Assembly: GCA_038501195.1 (NCBI GenBank)
Contig: JBBPUQ010000011.1
Location: 1,922,001-1,986,000, forward strand
Reading direction: 5' to 3'
Length of the DNA stretch: 64,000 bases
Source: Nemania diffusa
Taxonomy: Eukaryota > Ascomycota > Sordariomycetes > Xylariales > Xylariaceae
Shown here: positions 2,723-15,100 of the stretch, in pieces
Layout of the letters: the number at the start of each line of letters is the position of its first letter
Numbering within the stretch: the first letter of the stretch is position 1
The notes under the pieces: generated by a model
Database searches by the model: none
Seen by the model: the letters and a program-made list of their open reading frames with translations, nothing else
What the model was told of the DNA's origin: nothing
Made by a program: the position numbers and the translations under genes

Positions 2723-5700
2723 AATATATAAATAATATTTTATTTATAAACTTTATTTTATTTAAATATATTAATTATAACAATTATAAAATTTTTAATA
2801 TATTATAGCTATAAAGTTTTATATTTAATTCATTTAATTTAATTAATTAAATTGTTTATATAATAAATATATTAATTATTTTTGTTAATTTATTATATTA
2901 TATAAATATTTTAAATAATAAAAAATCAATTATTTTTTTAAACAACTTTTTAATTATTAGATTTGATTTATTTAATTTTATAAAATATTATATTTGATTT
3001 AATAAAGCTTTTAAAACTAACTTTTGTTATTAATTTTTTTATATAACTTTAATAATTAATTCGATATTTTTTTATATAAAAAAATATAATAAAAATAACA
3101 ATTTTACAAAAAAAAAAAAAAGCTATAGTTTATAAAAAGTTTTAATAAAATATTAAAACTTTATAATAAATAAAGCTTATAAAAATATCGTTGCTTATAT
3201 ATATAAATTTATTAAAAAATATTAAACAAAAACTTAAAGTTTAAGATTTATTTTTATAACAACTATTAATATAAACAAAATAGTTTATTTTAACTTTTAT
3301 AATTTTATAAATATTTCTATTTTTTATAAAGCTATAAAAATTAATTAAGCTGTTATATTTAAAGAAATTACTATTTAAAACTTAAATTATAAAATATATA
3401 ATTTAATAAATATTAATATATATATATAAAAATAAAAACTAAATTAAACTATTGTTTTTATAATTAAATATATTATATAAATTTAATATATAGTTATATT
3501 AAAAACTAAATTAGTTATAGTAAAATTAAATTAAATTAAATAAGTTTTTTAAAAAAAAAAAGCTAAATTAAATAAAATTAATTAATTAATTAATAATTTA
3601 GTTATTTAAAATTAAATTATATTAATAATTATAAATTAAACTATTATAATAAATATTATTAATTAAATTATTATATTTTATATTATTATTAATATAATAA
3701 ATTTTAATAATTTAAAATATAAAACATTTATTAAAATAAAAGTTATTATTTTTTATAATAACTTTAAAAAAAACAATATAAATTTTAAAATATAGTTTTA
3801 ATATTAATTTAATTATTTATTAATTAATATAAATTAGTTTATAAATAATATTATAAAAATAAAAAACATTAAATTTTATTTAAATAATATTACTGCTAAT
3901 AATTTATAACTTTATTTAAAAAATATTTATTTAAAGCAAATTATTATATTTATAAAATTATTAAAACTTTTAATTAAATAATATAGCAATTTAAATAATA
4001 AAAAAAAAACTTAAATAAAATAAAAAAGCTATAAATTAAAAAAATTAAAAATTTTTTAAACTTTTAAAAATTAGTTTATATATTTAACTAATAAATAACT
4101 TTTTTTTAAATTTTAATAAAAAAAAAAGTTTAATGTTTATTTTATAAAATAAATTAAAAATTAAATAATATTTTAATATTTAAATAAAAAAATAATATAT
4201 AAAAAGTTTATATTTTAATATAAATATTTAGTTTATATTTTAAATAAAAATAATATATTAAATAAATAATATAAAAAAAAATAAAAAAATAATTTAAAAT
4301 TATTTTAAATAATAAAAATATTAAAATAACTAATATAATTTTAAAACAAATATATTTAAAGTTTATAAAAAAAAAATTAATTAATTTATAAAAAAAAAAA
4401 AAGTTTTATTTATTAAAAAAAAAAACATTGAATTTAAAAATATTTTTTAATAAATAAATTTATAATAATTATTGTTAAAAATTAAAAAGTTAAATTATTA
4501 ATTATATATTTAAAATATAAAAATATTAAATAAATTAAAAATTAAAAATAAAAAAAAGTTTAATTTTAAAATTATTAAATTTTTTTTTAAAAATATTATT
4601 AAATAAACTAATTGTAAATAATATAAAAGATTTTTTAATATTATTTTTAAATAAAAATTTATTTTTAATAACTATTATAATAAAAATAAATAAATAAACT
4701 TTTATTATTAAAACTTTAATTAATATAAAAATAAATAAATATATTTTTATAAATATAATATTTATTAAAAAAATTATAATAAAAATAAATATTATAATTT
4801 ATAACAATTTTATTAAATAAACTATAGCTAAATATAATATTAATTTATATTAAAAAATAAATTAAACTTTAATAATAAATTTTTATTTATAAAAATATAT
4901 TTTTAAAAATATATTTTTTATAATAATTAATATAAAATATAACTTTTTAATTAAAAAAATATTTTATAAACAATATAATATTTTAATAAATTATAAATAA
5001 TATTGTTATATTTTTTTATTTTTAAATAAAAAACTTATAATAAATAAAAAAATAAATATAACTATAAAAATATTTAAAAAAACTATATTATAAAAAATAT
5101 AATAAAAAAAGTTTTTTAAATTTTATAAAAACTTTTAATATAATAATATATAAAAAATAAATTATTAATTATAAATAGTTAAAATAAAAAAGGTTTTTTT
5201 ACTACTGTTAAATTTATTTAAAAAAATAAATTAAAAATATAACAAATAAAAATTATATAAACTATAAAAAAATATAATAAAATAATATAAATATAAGCTA
5301 TTAATAAATATTATTATTATTAAAACTATTTTTTTTATAAAGTTTAATTATTATAAATAAAGTAAGCTATATATTATTAATATTAATAAAATCGATATAA
5401 TAATTTAAAATAAAAAATAAAAAAAAAAAGCATAAAAATAAGTTTTTAAAAAATACTGCTTTTTATTTTATATATTTAATAAAATAAATTTAAATCAATT
5501 ATTATTAAATTTATTTATAAACTATTAAATTAAATTTATTTTTAATAAAACTATTAATAATTTAATTAATTACTTTTTATATAAATTATTAAAAAATATA
5601 TAGTAAAAAACTTATATAAAAGATTTATTGTTTTATAAAATGCTTTATTTGTTATATTAATATTATTTGTTTTAAAATTAAATAAAAAGTTAAGATTTTA

Positions 5701-8160: not shown

Positions 8161-10418
8161 TTTTTAATTTTTTATATTAATTTTATATTTTAAAAAAATA
8201 TTAAGCTATAATATTATAAGTTTTTTTAATATTTAAAAAAAAAAAAAAAAAAAATGCTTATATTAAATAATTTCTATTTTTATTTTAAAAATAAAAATAG
8301 TTATTTTAATATAAAAAAAACAGTTTTAGATTTTTTAATTAAAAAGTTTATAATTTATAATACTATTTTATAAAAAACTATATTAAAGTTTATTAAAAAA
8401 TACTTTAATAGTTTTAAAAAAAATATTTACTAATAATATTAAAACTATATAAAAAATAAAATAATATAAAACTTTTATATATTTTATTTAATTATTAATA
8501 AAATTTAATAAAATATTTTTTTTTAAATAAAAAATAAATGTAAATTAATTTATTAATAAAAATAATATTATATATATAAAGTATTTTTTTTATTTAATAT
8601 AATAAAATATAAATTTAAAAATAAAAAGTTTATTATTAATTATAATATTTAAAAAAAATTAAATAAAACTAAATTTAAATTTATTTTTAATAAAATATAT
8701 ATTTATATTATTATAATTTAAATATTTTATAAAATAATAAACTAGCTATATATTATAGCTTTTAACAATAGTTAAAATTAAAATTATTTATATATTATTT
8801 ATTATATTATAGAAAATTTTATATAAAGAAATAAACAATTTTTATAAAAAGCTAAAATAAAACTAATTAAAAACAAATAAGTTTTAAAAATATATTAAAG
8901 AAAAATTAAAAAATTATAAAACTATAATAAAACTTTTTAAAAAGTTTTAATTAAAATATATAAAAAAATATTTACTATATAAATTATTATTAAATAAAAA
9001 TTTATTTAATAAATATTTACTTAATAACTTTTTATTTAAAAGAATTATATTTATATAAATAATATTAATAATAAAACTATTTTTAGTTAATTTATTTTAA
9101 TAAAAAATATTTTATTTATTGTTATATTTAAAAAAACTATTTAAAATTAAATTATTTAAAATAATTTAAACTTTAAAACAAATATTTAAAAGTTTATTAG
9201 TTTATATATATTTATTTTAAAAAACTTTATTTATAATATATTTATTTTAAAAAATATTATTTAAAAAAGTAATTATAAAAAAAATATAACATTAAATTTA
9301 ATATTTTTAAATAATAAAAAATAAAATATAAAAATAATAAATTTTTTTATTTTTATTAATAATATTTTTTTAAATAATAAATTTATAATTAAATTTTATT
9401 ATTAATATTTATTTATAAAAAATAAATTATAAATAAATATAAATTATTTTATAAATAAATAAAACTAAATATATTATATTTTAAAATATATAAATAAATT
9501 AGCTGTTTTAAAAATTATTTTATTTATAAAACAAGTTTTAAAATAAAATAGTTTTATATATATAATTATTATAAAAGTTTTAAAATATTTATTAAAATTA
9601 TATAACAACTTTTATAAATATAAAAAAACTAAAATTAAATATAAAAAGCTTAAAATAAAAAAACTTAAAACATTTTTAAATTTTTAACTTAAATTTATTA
9701 AATTAATTAATTAAATTTATATATTTTAAATTAATTATAAATAAAATTTATATAATAAATAATTAAAACAATTAAAACAATTAAATAAAATTATAATATT
9801 TAATATAAATAACTTTAAAGTTACTTTTAATATTTATTATTTTTATATTTAAATTATTAATTATTAATAGTATAAAAACTTTATTAATAATTTTATTTTA
9901 TAAAAAATTAATTTATAACTATTAAAATATAATATAGTTAATATTTTAAAAAATTTATTTATAAAACTATTATTTAATAAAGTTATATTTTTAATTATTA
10001 AACAATATTTTTTTATTTTAATATTTAAAAAATCAAAAAATAAAAATAAGCTTTATATAAAACTATAATATAAAAAAGAAATAATTTTAATATAAAAAAG
10101 TTTTTATTTTATTTATTATAAAATTAGCTATTAAAATATTAATTATTTATATTATAAAAAATATAAACATTTAAATATTATTTAAGTTATAATAATTATA
10201 AAAAAAAAAATAAATTATTTTAAAAATAATTAAAAAGTTAATATAAAAAAAAAAAGTTTAAAAAATAAAAAAGTTTAAAATAATTAGTTTTTTTTTTAAA
10301 TTTATTATATTATTAATTTTAAATTTAAATTAATATAAAAAAGTTTTATTTAATTTTTTAAAAAAAATCTTTAAAAAAAAGCTTTTATTAATAGTTTATT
10401 TAATAATATTTATAATAC

Positions 10419-10669
10419 AGGACCCAAGGGGGTCTGTTGGTTGCCTGACCTGTAGGTCAGTCACCTGGTCAGTAGACCTATAGACCTGTTGGTCACCCAA
10501 CAGGTCACCTGACCTGCAGTCACCTGCAGTCACCTGACTAGCCTGTACACCTAGCCCACCAACCTATATAGCCAAGGACCCTGGCTTCGCCAGGTCCCCC
10601 ACCTACTTTCCTAATATATACGATTCTAGACCTCAATTTACAGCCCTGTGCCTTGGCAATCCTAATAAA
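10419..10669 (+). repeat. Left 251-bp terminal inverted repeat
   Basis: It is dense in ACCTG/CAGGT motifs (GACCTGTAGGTCAG, CAGGTCACCTGACCTGCAG) and contains a hairpin CCTGGC-TTC-GCCAGG around 10580-10594. It ends in CCTAATAAA, immediately followed by TGGTGCCTCCCGCAG. That join resembles an LTR/primer-binding-site junction even though the partner copy is inverted. Confidence 0.85.
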
Positions 10670-10968
10670 TGGTGCCTCCCGCAGTGTTTAGCTGGAACCA
10701 AGCCATACCACCCTATGTCGCAGCGACTTCGCGCGAGTAGAAGATTTGCACCCGCAGCGTGTACGCGCGACGCGAATACGCAGCGATACGCGCGACCATA
10801 ACTTTAACTCCGGCCCGTTTACGTTTACGCAGCTGTACTTGACCAGTACGCGCGACCCGGACCCGTTTACGCTGCGTACGGCAGCGTATACGCATACATT
10901 GACAATTTCGAGCTGAACACACTTCGGACCATTTCGAGGTCGAAATTACTTCATTTTGTCCCGGCATA

Positions 10969-11748
10969 ATGGGTTTTTTGTCCGACGAGATTTCGGCCGA
11001 CTGTCGGGCTATGGTACAGTCAGTTGATAGAATGGAACAAGTACATCATACGTACTTAGCCGACTCGAAGCAATATATCAAACGGTTAGCCGAATTTCAA
11101 GAAAAGCTTGACCAAGAAGTAGCTGAGCACCAGGCTTTTCTCGACCGACAAGAATTCGACCGAAAATTTCAACTACATGTACAAAATTACCGTCGGCTCA
11201 AGTTACTGCAGACGCGGCACATAGCTTACCCAAGTACCTGCGTACGCGGACCAGACGGAAACTGGTATAAGGCCGAGCCAAGGCAACGCGGCTGCCGTGG
11301 CTCCCGCGGCAAAAGGACTACTGCCGAAACGTTGGATCAGTCAAATCTAATCAGCCCTACAGACCTACCAGTCCTTTCTAGCCCTACAAACCTACCAGTC
11401 CTTCCTAGCCCTCCAGACCTACCTACAGACCTTCCTAGTCGTACAGACCTACCTGCAGACCTTCCTAGTCGTACAGACCTACCTGCAGACCTTCCTAGTC
11501 GTACAGACTTACCTGCAGACCTTCCTAGCCCACCAGACCTACCTGCAGTCCTTCCTAGCCCTCCAGACCTACCTGCAGTCCTTCCTAGCCTTACAGACCT
11601 ACCCGCGGACCTTCCTAGCCTCACAGACCTATTTGGAGACCTAGCCAGCCAATCAGACTATTCTACACCTACCAACCTGGTTACTTCGACAGCCTTGGTA
11701 GCCCTCCGACCAGGCCTACTAGCTAGACCAAACCTTTGGCCAGACTAA
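10969..11748 (+). CDS. Element-encoded coiled-coil protein with decapeptide repeats
   Basis: A 259-residue ORF of unknown function is the only gene of the inverted-repeat element. The ATG is the first one after an in-frame TGA near 10899. Residues about 15-85 are charged and predicted helical or coiled-coil (runs such as AEFQEKLDQEVAEHQ), followed by a basic segment near 100-115. Residues about 129-225 are roughly ten copies of a 9-10 residue unit like LPADLPSRTD, encoded by a 30-bp DNA repeat. The tail is hydrophobic and Pro-rich. A helical, basic, low-complexity layout is reminiscent of a Gag-like protein, but no zinc knuckle, protease or polymerase is present. I do not recognise the family. 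The minus strand is also open across the repeats, as expected for a repeat of this phase. Confidence 0.6.
   Translation: MGFLSDEISADCRAMVQSVDRMEQVHHTYLADSKQYIKRLAEFQEKLDQEVAEHQAFLDRQEFDRKFQLHVQNYRRLKLLQTRHIAYPSTCVRGPDGNWYKAEPRQRGCRGSRGKRTTAETLDQSNLISPTDLPVLSSPTNLPVLPSPPDLPTDLPSRTDLPADLPSRTDLPADLPSRTDLPADLPSPPDLPAVLPSPPDLPAVLPSLTDLPADLPSLTDLFGDLASQSDYSTPTNLVTSTALVALRPGLLARPNLWPD
11353..11649 (+). repeat. 30-bp tandem repeat inside the element ORF
   Basis: About ten units of AGNCNTACAGACCTACCTGC-like sequence are present. The first two are 27 bp and the rest 30 bp, so the protein frame is preserved. Some neighbouring units are identical, which suggests recent expansion. Confidence 0.8.
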
Positions 11749-11783
11749 GGAATATTGAGACAGAAACGTCGGGACGGTAACAT

Positions 11784-11822
11784 TGGGACGCTGGCGTTGG
11801 GACGCTGGCGTTGGGACGTTAG
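11784..11822 (+). repeat. 14-bp triplicate (TTGGGACGCTGGCG)
   Basis: Two exact copies and one diverged copy of TTGGGACGCTGGCG lie between the ORF stop and the right inverted repeat. The function is unknown. Confidence 0.6.
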
Positions 11823-11882
11823 GCATGTTAGATTAATTATAGTTGGTGAGGTCACCAAGGTTTTATTTGTTGCCCGGCATTT

Positions 11883-12133
11883 TTTATTAGGATTGCCAAG
11901 GCACAGGGCTGTAAATTGAGGTCTAGAATCGTATATATTAGGAAAGTAGGTGGGGGACCTGGCGAAGCCAGGGTCCTTGGCTATATAGGTTGGTGGGCTA
12001 GGTGTACAGGCTAGTCAGGTGACTGCAGGTGACTGCAGGTCAGGTGACCTGTTGGGTGACCAACAGGTCTATAGGTCTACTGACCAGGTGACTGACCTAC
12101 AGGTCAGGCAACCAACAGACCCCCTTGGGTCCT
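11883..12133 (-). repeat. Right 251-bp terminal inverted repeat
   Basis: This is the inverse complement of 10419-10669 with no mismatch seen by eye, including the GCCAGG-type hairpin. Such identity next to heavily mutated DNA points to recent mobility or gene conversion between the two ends. Confidence 0.85.
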
Positions 12134-15100
12134 ATATCAATTTAATAAATTAAAACTTTTTATTTTTATTTTAATTAATATAAAAATTAAAATATATTTA
12201 TATATAAATATTTGATTTATTAAAAAAATAATATAATTTTTAAATCTTTTTAAATTATTTAATTTTAAATTTATTTTTATTATAAAATATAATAGTAATA
12301 ATAATTAAAAAATTACTAAAATATTAAATGTTTATTTTTATATTAATATATATATTATTTAAAATATTTTTATAATAATATTAAATATAAAATATAATAT
12401 AATTATTAAATAAAAATTTTTTATATATTATAATATATTAATTAACTATTAAAAATAAAAACTAATATTTTTTATTAAAAAAAAAAAAAAGTTTATTAAA
12501 AATATATTATTAAATAAAATAAAAAAACTAAAAAGTTTAAATTATTAAATCGATATTATATAATAAAATAAATTATTTAAAACTAAAATAACTTAAAAAA
12601 TATAAAATATTATTTAATTATAAAACTTATTTATTATAAAAAAACAAATTTTTTAATTAAAAGTTATATATAAAAAATTAAATAAAAAAACAAAAAAATA
12701 TTTTTTTATAATTAATATTATTTATATTATATTTAAACTTTTTTAATATATTATTAATTTATTTAAAAAAAATTAAATAAAGCATAAATTATAAAAAATA
12801 AAACTATTTTAAAAAAACTTATTTAAAAAAGTTTTATTAAAAAAAAAACTTAAGTTAAAAAATTATTATAACAAATATAAACTATAAAAAAATGTTATAA
12901 AATAATATAAATATTAATTTATTAATATTTTTATATTTAATATTATAACTTTTATAATAATAATATATTAAAAAAATATTAAGTTATATAAAATGATTTT
13001 TTTATATAAAATAAACTTAATAATTACTTAAAAAAAATTTAAATTAAAAAGTTTAAAAAAAAACTTTTAAAAAATAACTAAATAAATAATATTTATAAAA
13101 TATTATAAATATTTTAATATATTTAATAAAAAAACTTTTGATTAAATGTTATTTTAAAAATATAAAGTTAATTATTAAATTAAACTTATAAAAAATTTAA
13201 AAAATTTAAAATATAATATTTTATATAAAATATTTTTAAAAAAAATTAAAATTTATAAATAATATATATATAAAGATTTAATAAAAAGTTTTATTAAATT
13301 TATTATAACACTTTAAATAATACTAGTTTTATTTATATAAAAAAGTAATAAATTTTTAAAGCTATATATAAATTATTAAAAATTAAACTTTTTAATATAA
13401 AAAAACTGATATTTTTTATTTTTAATTAATAAAATATTTATTTATTTTATAAAAGCAAAAGTTTATATTAAATTAAATATAAAATAAATATTTTACTATA
13501 TATATATAATAAAAAAATATAAATTTTTAACTATATTTTATATATAATATAAACTATATTAATTTAATGTTTTATTTTTTAATTTAATAAATAAACTAGT
13601 TATATTTTAATAGTTTATTAATAATATTTTAATTAAATATTTTAATATATTTTATATAATATATATTAATAATATATTAATATATTTAAACAATAAAATT
13701 AAATATAAATATTATATAAAAAAAGTTTTAAATAAATTATAAATTATAAAATTATAAATAAATTTAAAAAAATATAAATTTTATATAATTAAAATTAAAT
13801 TTTTAAAATTTATTATTAATATTAATAAAATTAAAATAAATTTAACAAAAACTAAAATAATTTATAAATAAAAACTATTTAAAAAATATAATATAGTTTA
13901 AATTTAAAAAATGCGGTTTTTTTTAAAGTTTTATAATTTTTACAAATAATTTATTAAAAAGTTTAACTATATTATAAAACTATTGATTTAATTAATAACT
14001 ATTATAGTTTATTTTAATTAATTTAAAATATATTAAAAAATATTTAATTAGCTAAAGCAAACTTTATTATTAGCGTTAATATTTCGTTATTTTTTGTTTA
14101 ATATAAAAATATATATAAAAACAAATATATTAAATAAAATAATTATAAATTGTTTTTTATAAAAAAACAATTTAAAAAATAACTAATATTTTATAATATT
14201 TTATTTTAAAATATTTTATAAAACTAAATTTAATTATAATATTTATAATAAAAAAATATTAATAATAATAAAAAAATTTATTTATTAAAAAATAAAATTA
14301 ATAAATTTATAATAAATTAAATTTTTTATAATAATTATTAACTATATAATATTAAAATATTTTATTGTTAAATATATATTAAATTTTTAATAAATTAAAT
14401 AAATTAAGCTAATATTATATTATAATTTTATAATTATTTATTAATTAAAAATTTAAAATATTATTTTAAATATTATATTAAAACTAAAAAATAAATTAAA
14501 AAGTTAAAAATAAAAAAAAAACAAATAATATATAATAATATTTTTTTAATTAATTATAACTTTAAAATAGCTAATTTTAAAAAACTTTATTTTAAAATGT
14601 TTTATTTTATAAATAATTAAAATTTATAAACTAGTTATTAACAAGTTATTATTAATATTAAATATATTTTTAATTAATATTTTATTATAAATTAATTATA
14701 AAAATTTTTTATTAAAAAAATATAAAAAGTTAATATTTAATATATTATAAATAAATTATTAAATATTTAAAAATTTAATAATATATAAAAAATATTTAAT
14801 TATAGCTAATATAAATAATTTAAAAAGTATATAATTAAATTTTAATAATTTATTTTAAAAAAAATAAAACTAAAAAACTAATAATAAATAAATATTAATC
14901 GTTAAAAATATTTAAAAATATTAATATATATATAGCTAATTATTTTTATAAAGCTATTAAAATATTTTAAAATAAAATACTAAATAAATTTTCTTTATTT
15001 AAAGTTTTAAATTATTTTTAATAATATATTGTTATTAACTTTAAAAGTTTTTTTAAAAACAAATTAAATAATAATATAATTTTTATTATAATAAATTATT

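What the first reader, a model, noticed from the sequence alone, without database searches (positions are those of the whole stretch)
10419..12133. Un-RIPed 1.7-kb element with long identical inverted repeats in a RIP graveyard
A sharply bounded, GC-balanced island with 251-bp inverted repeats that look identical sits inside 25 kb of A/T wreckage. It encodes one novel protein and no transposase. This combination does not match a textbook class that I recognise. Perfect ends suggest recent activity, and escape from RIP suggests few copies or an inactive sexual cycle.
Basis: seen in the sequence. Interest (0 to 1): 0.75.

Follow-up and report, generated by a model that had tools for sequence, protein, structure and literature searches.

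The report
LTR retrotransposon with one flipped end
The island is a small "passenger" retrotransposon of a fungus, of an ordinary kind, and it looks puzzling only because one of its two end repeats was put in backwards, apparently by a copying mistake before it inserted.

Summary
A GC-balanced island with 251-bp identical inverted ends sits in about 26 kb of nearly pure A/T DNA. The reading "no known class" does not hold.

The window's own genome holds at least 11 places with this terminal repeat. Solo copies carry 5-bp target duplications. Four of the five two-ended copies have the repeat in DIRECT orientation; only the window copy is inverted. The repeat is a 255-bp LTR. After a 2-nt spacer AA it is followed by 10 nt complementary to the 3' end of the genome's tRNA-Tyr. 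The element is a non-autonomous LTR retrotransposon, 1727 bp, TSD ATTTA. It encodes one 259-aa protein for which no relative was found and whose first half shows purifying selection between two copies.

The oddity is the flipped right LTR. The junction equals body + reverse complement of [LTR+AA], which fits an LTR joined backwards at the cDNA stage and then inserted by integrase through two U3 ends. That step is inferred from one copy. By inference this copy is a replication dead end. It is a new variant of a known kind, of moderate interest.

The parts
10408..10412 (.). left target-site duplication ATTTA
   Evidence: equal to 12140-12144; chance of equal 5-mers in these flanks 0.022
10413..10667 (+). 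left LTR (255 bp, TAATACAGG...CCTAATA; several relatives begin TGATACAGG)
10564..10571 (+). TATA-like core CTATATAG inside the LTR; TATATAG is kept in the 14 LTRs aligned
   Evidence: calling it a TATA box is inference
10668..10669 (+). 2-nt spacer AA between LTR and primer site
10670..10679 (+). primer binding site TGGTGCCTCC, 10 nt complementary to the tRNA-Tyr(GTA) 3' end plus CCA
10969..11748 (+). ORF, 259 aa, stop included; no known domain
   Evidence: selection test
11353..11642 (+). 30-bp in-frame tandem repeat (9.9 copies), Pro/Leu/Asp-rich C-terminal part of the ORF
11769..11882 (+). 3' end of the body (ends GGCATTT), conserved even in the divergent C8 copy (87%); no purine tract next to the LTR
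11883..11884 (-). TT = reverse complement of the AA spacer, flipped together with the LTR
11885..12139 (-). right LTR in inverted orientation, identical to the left one except two bases in the outermost 6
12140..12144 (.). right target-site duplication ATTTA

Best explanation
10413-12139 is one recent copy of a low-copy, non-autonomous LTR retrotransposon family. SHOWN: the 255-bp terminal repeat behaves as an LTR elsewhere in the genome (solo copies with 5-bp TSDs; direct repeats around the same body), a tRNA-Tyr primer site follows it, and the body encodes a protein under selection but no recognisable polymerase or integrase. INFERRED: an unseen autonomous element supplies reverse transcriptase and integrase in trans. 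SHOWN: in the window copy the right LTR plus the 2-nt spacer is inverted exactly at its natural borders, inside one pair of TSDs, and is identical to the left LTR except at two outermost bases. INFERRED: the flip arose on the cDNA, by a reverse-transcriptase jump from the body/U3 border onto the 3' end of the plus-strand U3-R-U5-AA segment, or by end-joining of that segment backwards; integrase then inserted a molecule with a U3 end on each side. INFERRED consequence: a transcript from the left LTR lacks a sense-strand R at its 3' end and so cannot make the normal first strand transfer, which makes the copy a replication dead end. Its two LTR promoters face each other, which could yield double-stranded RNA.
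For: At least 11 genomic places with the repeat. 4 of 5 two-ended copies have direct LTRs: C5, C2, C8, C6; the window is the exception. TSDs are exact in 8 of the 9 copies with both ends readable, and the ninth (C6) differs by one A/G; chance per copy 0.004-0.029. The 2 of 11 places not counted (C7, C10) are truncated or have an end that I could not place. PBS: 10 nt match to tRNA-Tyr, 2 nt from the LTR; the same site is intact in C5 and differs only by C-to-T or G-to-A in C2 (2 changes), C8 (4) and C6 (5). Junction equals GGCATTT + reverse complement of CCTAATA+AA, while the version without AA is absent from the window. Own LTR pair: 0 differences in the inner 249 positions, whereas each of the 12 other LTRs aligned differs from it at 6 or more positions and by indels, so the right LTR most likely came from the same cDNA. 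ORF: 14 synonymous against 8 non-synonymous differences over 76.7 and 274.3 sites in 117 of the 259 codons, Fisher p = 1.5e-5.
Against: No recognisable polypurine tract precedes the 3' LTR in window, C5, C2 or C8. LTRs of the window type end ...TA, not ...CA (C8, C2 solo, C10 and the C6 3' LTR end ...CA). In C10 the primer site matches only in part (6 of 10 positions differ, two of them not C-to-T type, and the spacer is AG). No autonomous partner with these LTRs was found, though only part of the candidates could be read. The flip is a single case. The AA argument rests on a run of T whose length can change by slippage, and AA also stands beside the left LTR of integrated copies. LTR borders were set by eye with the TSDs in view, so the TSD chances are optimistic. 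No reads were available to exclude an assembly error.
Confidence: 0.8

Rival explanations
1. The right LTR was flipped or replaced in place after a normal insertion, by a local inversion or by an inverted gene conversion from the left LTR.
For: The family was inserted normally elsewhere. LTRs hold many small palindromes that could form hairpins (by eye). An inverted copy of left LTR + AA would also supply the AA.
Against: Flipping the integrated right LTR alone predicts GGCATTTTATTAGG, which is absent; the observed string has two more T, and ATTTA outside is intact. A conversion tract would have to stop exactly before the primer site on one side and exactly at the TSD on the other.
Confidence: 0.17
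2. A true terminal-inverted-repeat DNA transposon or MITE-like element.
For: 251-bp perfect inverted ends, low copy number, sharp borders.
Against: 4 of 5 two-ended copies have direct repeats. Solo ends with their own 5-bp TSDs (C11, two on C1, C2) are normal for LTRs and unexpected for TIRs. A tRNA primer site is present. No transposase domain.
Confidence: 0.02
3. Assembly error: a misplaced or reversed repeat copy.
For: No reads could be inspected.
Against: The flipped arm is identical to the left LTR in its inner 249 positions and differs from the 12 other LTRs aligned. The junction is base-exact at natural cDNA borders and the outer TSD is intact. The assembly has 16 contigs for 55.6 Mb.
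Confidence: 0.04
4. Composite-transposon model: the 250-bp unit is an independent mobile element that carries the body between two copies in either orientation.
For: The unit occurs alone and in both orientations around the body.
Against: Body borders are the same in the direct copies with no TSD between unit and body, and the primer site with its 2-nt spacer fits reverse transcription.
Confidence: 0.03

Closest known systems
Non-autonomous LTR retrotransposons: TRIM and TR-GAG types
   Same: Short LTRs, PBS right after the LTR, 5-bp TSD, no pol, solo LTRs, mobilised in trans (the last inferred). TR-GAG, as recalled, keeps one gag-like ORF.
   Different: Longer than a classical TRIM (under 1 kb, recalled); the ORF has no detectable Gag similarity; no purine tract; the window copy has an inverted LTR.
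Template-switch complex LTR insertions in Triticeae (PMC1950507; abstract, passages and section 4 read)
   Same: Aberrant structure inside a single pair of TSDs with matching outer LTRs, explained there by faulty reverse transcription. The C6 copy here (LTR-body-LTR-body-LTR; flanks TATAA/TATAG) has that layout.
   Different: The cases there are tandem complexes. The word stem 'invert' does not occur in the paper's main text.
DIRS-type retrotransposons
   Same: Retroelement with inverted LTRs (PMC5633606, passages seen, for DIRS-1).
   Different: DIRS-1 encodes a tyrosine recombinase (same passages) and makes no TSD (recalled). Here 5-bp TSDs and direct LTRs are the rule.

Membership tests
LTR retrotransposon (non-autonomous) | long terminal repeats in direct orientation | tested here: met
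   4 of 5 two-ended copies direct; not met by the window copy itself
LTR retrotransposon (non-autonomous) | 4-6 bp target-site duplication | tested here: met
   8 of 9 copies exact 5 bp, ninth off by one A/G; 2 of 11 places not readable
LTR retrotransposon (non-autonomous) | tRNA primer binding site next to the 5' LTR | tested here: met
   10 nt to tRNA-Tyr, 2-nt spacer. Of 7 pattern hits only 2 were tested for a tRNA and both are tRNA-Tyr; the reversed-pattern control gave 10 hits
LTR retrotransposon (non-autonomous) | polypurine tract before the 3' LTR | tested here: not met
   body ends ...TTTATTTGTTGCCCGGCATTT in window and C5; the end is conserved but not purine-rich
LTR retrotransposon (non-autonomous) | TG...CA LTR ends | tested here: inconclusive
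   C8 3', C2 solo, C10 are TG...CA and the C6 3' LTR too; window-type LTRs end ...TA
TRIM | no coding capacity, total under about 1 kb (recalled) | tested here: not met
   single copies of 1.4-1.7 kb with an ORF under selection
TR-GAG | single gag ORF | tested here: inconclusive
   ORF present; no Pfam match above cut-off, no homologue, structure tool switched off
TIR DNA transposon or MITE | inverted ends in all copies, superfamily TSD | tested here: not met
   direct orientation in 4 of 5; solo ends with TSD
DIRS | tyrosine recombinase, no TSD | tested here: not met
   TSDs present; no recombinase domain in the ORF; an autonomous DIRS partner was not searched for

The most novel reading that the evidence does not exclude
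This family lacks a normal polypurine tract, and its plus-strand synthesis is loose at the body/U3 border, so that its reverse transcription now and then yields U3-U3 molecules that integrase accepts as readily as normal U3-U5 ones. The window would then be a natural record of U3/U3 integration, and a locus whose facing promoters make double-stranded RNA against the family.
Probability: 0.15. Interest if true: 0.65.

Novelty: new variant of a known kind. Interest (0 to 1): 0.38.

Why it matters
It shows how a single misoriented LTR can make a retrotransposon pass for an unknown inverted-repeat class, a trap for repeat annotation that relies on one copy. If the pre-integration reading holds, it documents in a natural genome that integrase can use two U3 ends, and it ties the error to exact cDNA borders. 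The inverted copy is also a candidate natural trigger of RNA silencing against its own family. The family adds a selected protein without known relatives, carried without pol.

Tried and rejected
Rejected: MITE or TIR transposon, composite transposon, DIRS (see rivals and membership test). Two adjacent independent insertions: the two window LTRs agree in their inner 249 positions while the 12 other LTRs aligned all differ, and the TTTTT before the inverted LTR does not match the outer ATTTA as a TSD of its own (sequence).

Autonomous partner: RVT_1 gave 50 matches, rve 1 below cut-off, RVT_2 23. Only 21 of these 74 places came as loci, with about 1.5 kb on each side; they were compared with the LTRs and the body (with 13 further loci, L055-L067). 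Among the 21 only L049 gave a weak 45-nt hit (E 0.003), taken as chance. LTRs further away would have been missed. The one open copia-like frame (C10:3771284, L069) shows no such LTR in its locus, and its product finds nothing at E<=0.001 in the ten family loci or the window. One RVT_2 match (C2:1079295-1079741, E 1.4e-10, 9 stops) lies 376 bp beyond the end of the C2 copy and was not studied further. No partner found is not proof of none.

Homologues of the protein: none at E<=0.001 among 740 candidates from about 5.8 billion proteins; none in viral contigs (17 pattern matches, none confirmed). In the own genome 6 matches at E<=1: window, two on the C5 copy, two on the C2 copy (the second at E 0.009), and one weak at C5:3371257 (E 0.19).

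Literature: 2,041 papers, 20 listed; 105, 20 listed; 0; 38, 12 listed; 9; 10, 8 listed; 8; 918, 10 listed. I saw no described integrated LTR element with one LTR inverted. Of the 8 papers I looked at passages in four (PMC8786324, PMC2151762, PMC5633606, PMC3536649): an inverted LTR in a locust lncRNA, a primer scheme, DIRS-1, and separate LTRs near yeast Ty elements. The other four were seen in the listing only. Only part of PubMed Central is held, so this is weak evidence of absence.

Full report
WHAT IS THERE. In 100-bp steps the island at 10401-12150 is the only stretch of 30% GC or more in the first 25.9 kb of the window, inside DNA of 1-8% GC. Its arms are identical over 251 nt (10419-10669 and 11883-12133). 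The homology extends 6 nt further out on both sides with two differences, at the 2nd and the 6th LTR position. Both fit a C-to-T or G-to-A change, and the inner 249 positions of the LTR show none. The full unit is 10413-12139, flanked by ATTTA on both sides.

RELATIVES DECIDE THE CLASS. The window lies in a 55.6-Mb genome of 16 contigs. Searches with the whole element (38 matches) and with the terminal repeat alone (18 matches) point to 11 places with this repeat, a lower bound by the tool's own statement. I read all 11. Two-ended copies: C5 (1419 bp), C2 (1566 bp, hypermutated), C8 (1650 bp, 5' half hypermutated), C6 (2999 bp, three repeats and two bodies in tandem, hypermutated), and the window (1727 bp). 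In C5, C2, C8 and C6 the repeats are direct; only in the window are they inverted. Solo repeats with TSDs: C11, two on C1, one on C2. C7 is truncated, and C10 has one repeat followed by unrelated sequence; these two are left out of the TSD count. TSDs of 5 bp are exact in 8 of the 9 remaining copies; the ninth (C6) reads TATAA/TATAG. The chance that two 5-mers from the same flanks agree is 0.004-0.029 per copy. It is somewhat optimistic, since I placed the borders by eye with the flanks in view, but the same two border motifs serve all copies of a subfamily.

WHY AN LTR. The repeat begins TG in the less mutated copies and ends TA (window type) or CA (C8, C2 solo, C10 and C6 3' LTR). The 14 LTRs aligned share TATATAG in their core (the C8 5', C6 middle and C7 repeats were not in that alignment). 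AA and then TGGTGCCTCC follow the left repeat. These ten bases are complementary to the 3' end GGAGGCA plus CCA of tRNA-Tyr(GTA), whose genes lie at C6:4481513 and C10:2747047. The pattern used to find it gave 7 hits against 10 for the reversed control, so the hit list alone means nothing. The evidence is that the two hits tested are real tRNA genes and that the match lies exactly where a primer site should. The site is intact in C5 and altered by C-to-T or G-to-A only in C2, C8 and C6; in C10 it is only partly like it. Against: no purine tract precedes the 3' repeat. The last 115 bp or so of the body are nevertheless conserved to the divergent C8 copy (87%), which suggests a required signal of some other form.

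THE PROTEIN. The ORF of 259 aa has a charged N-terminal part and a repeated Pro-Leu-Asp tail coded by a 30-bp tandem repeat. Between window and C5, 117 codons of the N-terminal half show 14 synonymous and 8 non-synonymous differences over about 77 and 274 sites (Fisher p = 1.5e-5; a crude uncorrected count that leaves out the first codons and all after the stop in C5). It is therefore most likely a real, selected protein although no relative was found. The C5 frame holds one in-frame stop. A Gag-like role is the natural guess but is untested, because structure prediction was off.

THE FLIPPED LTR. In C5 and C8 the body ends GGCATTT and the LTR follows. In the window the body ends GGCATTT and is followed by TT and then the reverse complement of the LTR. 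This is exactly what inverting [LTR + AA] gives; inverting the LTR alone would give two T fewer. At the U5 end AA belongs to unintegrated cDNA only, because integrase removes such bases (established for retroviruses and LTR elements, recalled); beside the left LTR it also stands in integrated copies. Both borders of the inverted block are natural borders of cDNA synthesis: the start of the plus strand at U3 and the end of U5. Together with the outer TSD and the identity of the two LTRs, this favours a flip before integration. A template jump or backward end-joining would do it, and the data do not separate the two. PMC1950507 (abstract, passages and section 4 read) used the same logic, TSD plus matching outer LTRs, to assign tandem complexes to faulty reverse transcription. 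The C6 copy here has that tandem layout.

AGE AND HYPERMUTATION. The window LTR pair has no inner difference in 249; the C5 pair has 1 in 202. Both are young. Yet window and C5 differ at 67 of 1191 aligned bases, so neither is the direct parent of the other. The search with the body found no closer copy (4 candidates: window, C5, C2, C8), and the closest LTR is the C11 solo with 6 differences in 243. C2, C6, one C1 solo and half of C8 carry many C-to-T changes. In C2, 225 of the 563 C:G sites that window and C5 share are changed to T:A, at 46% of CA, 48% of CT, 32% of CC and 35% of CG, so the process is RIP-like but not confined to CpA. The old A/T blocks are depleted in CpA and CpC.

VERDICT. 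An ordinary kind of element (non-autonomous LTR retrotransposon; no description of this family was met in the searches made) in an unusual state (right LTR inverted, most likely before insertion). The element type is well supported; the route of the flip is a single-case inference.

Noticed in passing
L018 (C6:485500-494000), reverse strand: Tandem LTR-body-LTR-body-LTR array of the same family between flanks TATAA/TATAG, all hypermutated; fits template-switch complexes described in cereals.
   Followed up: partly
L015 (C8:1740000-1747000): One element copy with a strongly hypermutated 5' half and an almost untouched 3' half including the 3' LTR.
   Followed up: no
L016 (C10:1782500-1788500), about 2857-3052: LTR whose core is 99% identical to the window LTR over 98 nt but whose 5' end and U5 are of the C8 type, followed by a degraded, unrelated body: a possible trace of an autonomous partner or of a recombinant.
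   Followed up: no
L010 (C2:1074000-1082000); match at C2:1079295-1079741: Degraded RVT_2 match (E 1.4e-10, 9 stops) 376 bp beyond the end of the C2 copy; could be unrelated wreckage or a remnant of a partner.
   Followed up: no
window 10413-10418 and 12134-12139: The only two differences between the LTRs lie in the outermost 6 bp and are C-to-T type (chance about 5e-4 if random), as if hypermutation of the flank had just reached the edge.
   Followed up: no
L069 (C10:3769784-3773506): Open copia-like RVT_2 frame (tool reports 2041 aa without stop); by eye the DNA after its stop looks like coding sequence of a host peptidase-like gene (untested).
   Followed up: no
C14-C16 (L051-L054): Small contigs with repeated RVT_1 matches of equal score; L051 and L052 differ only where L051 is masked N. 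The huge open frames that the tool reports there are probably caused by masked stretches.
   Followed up: partly
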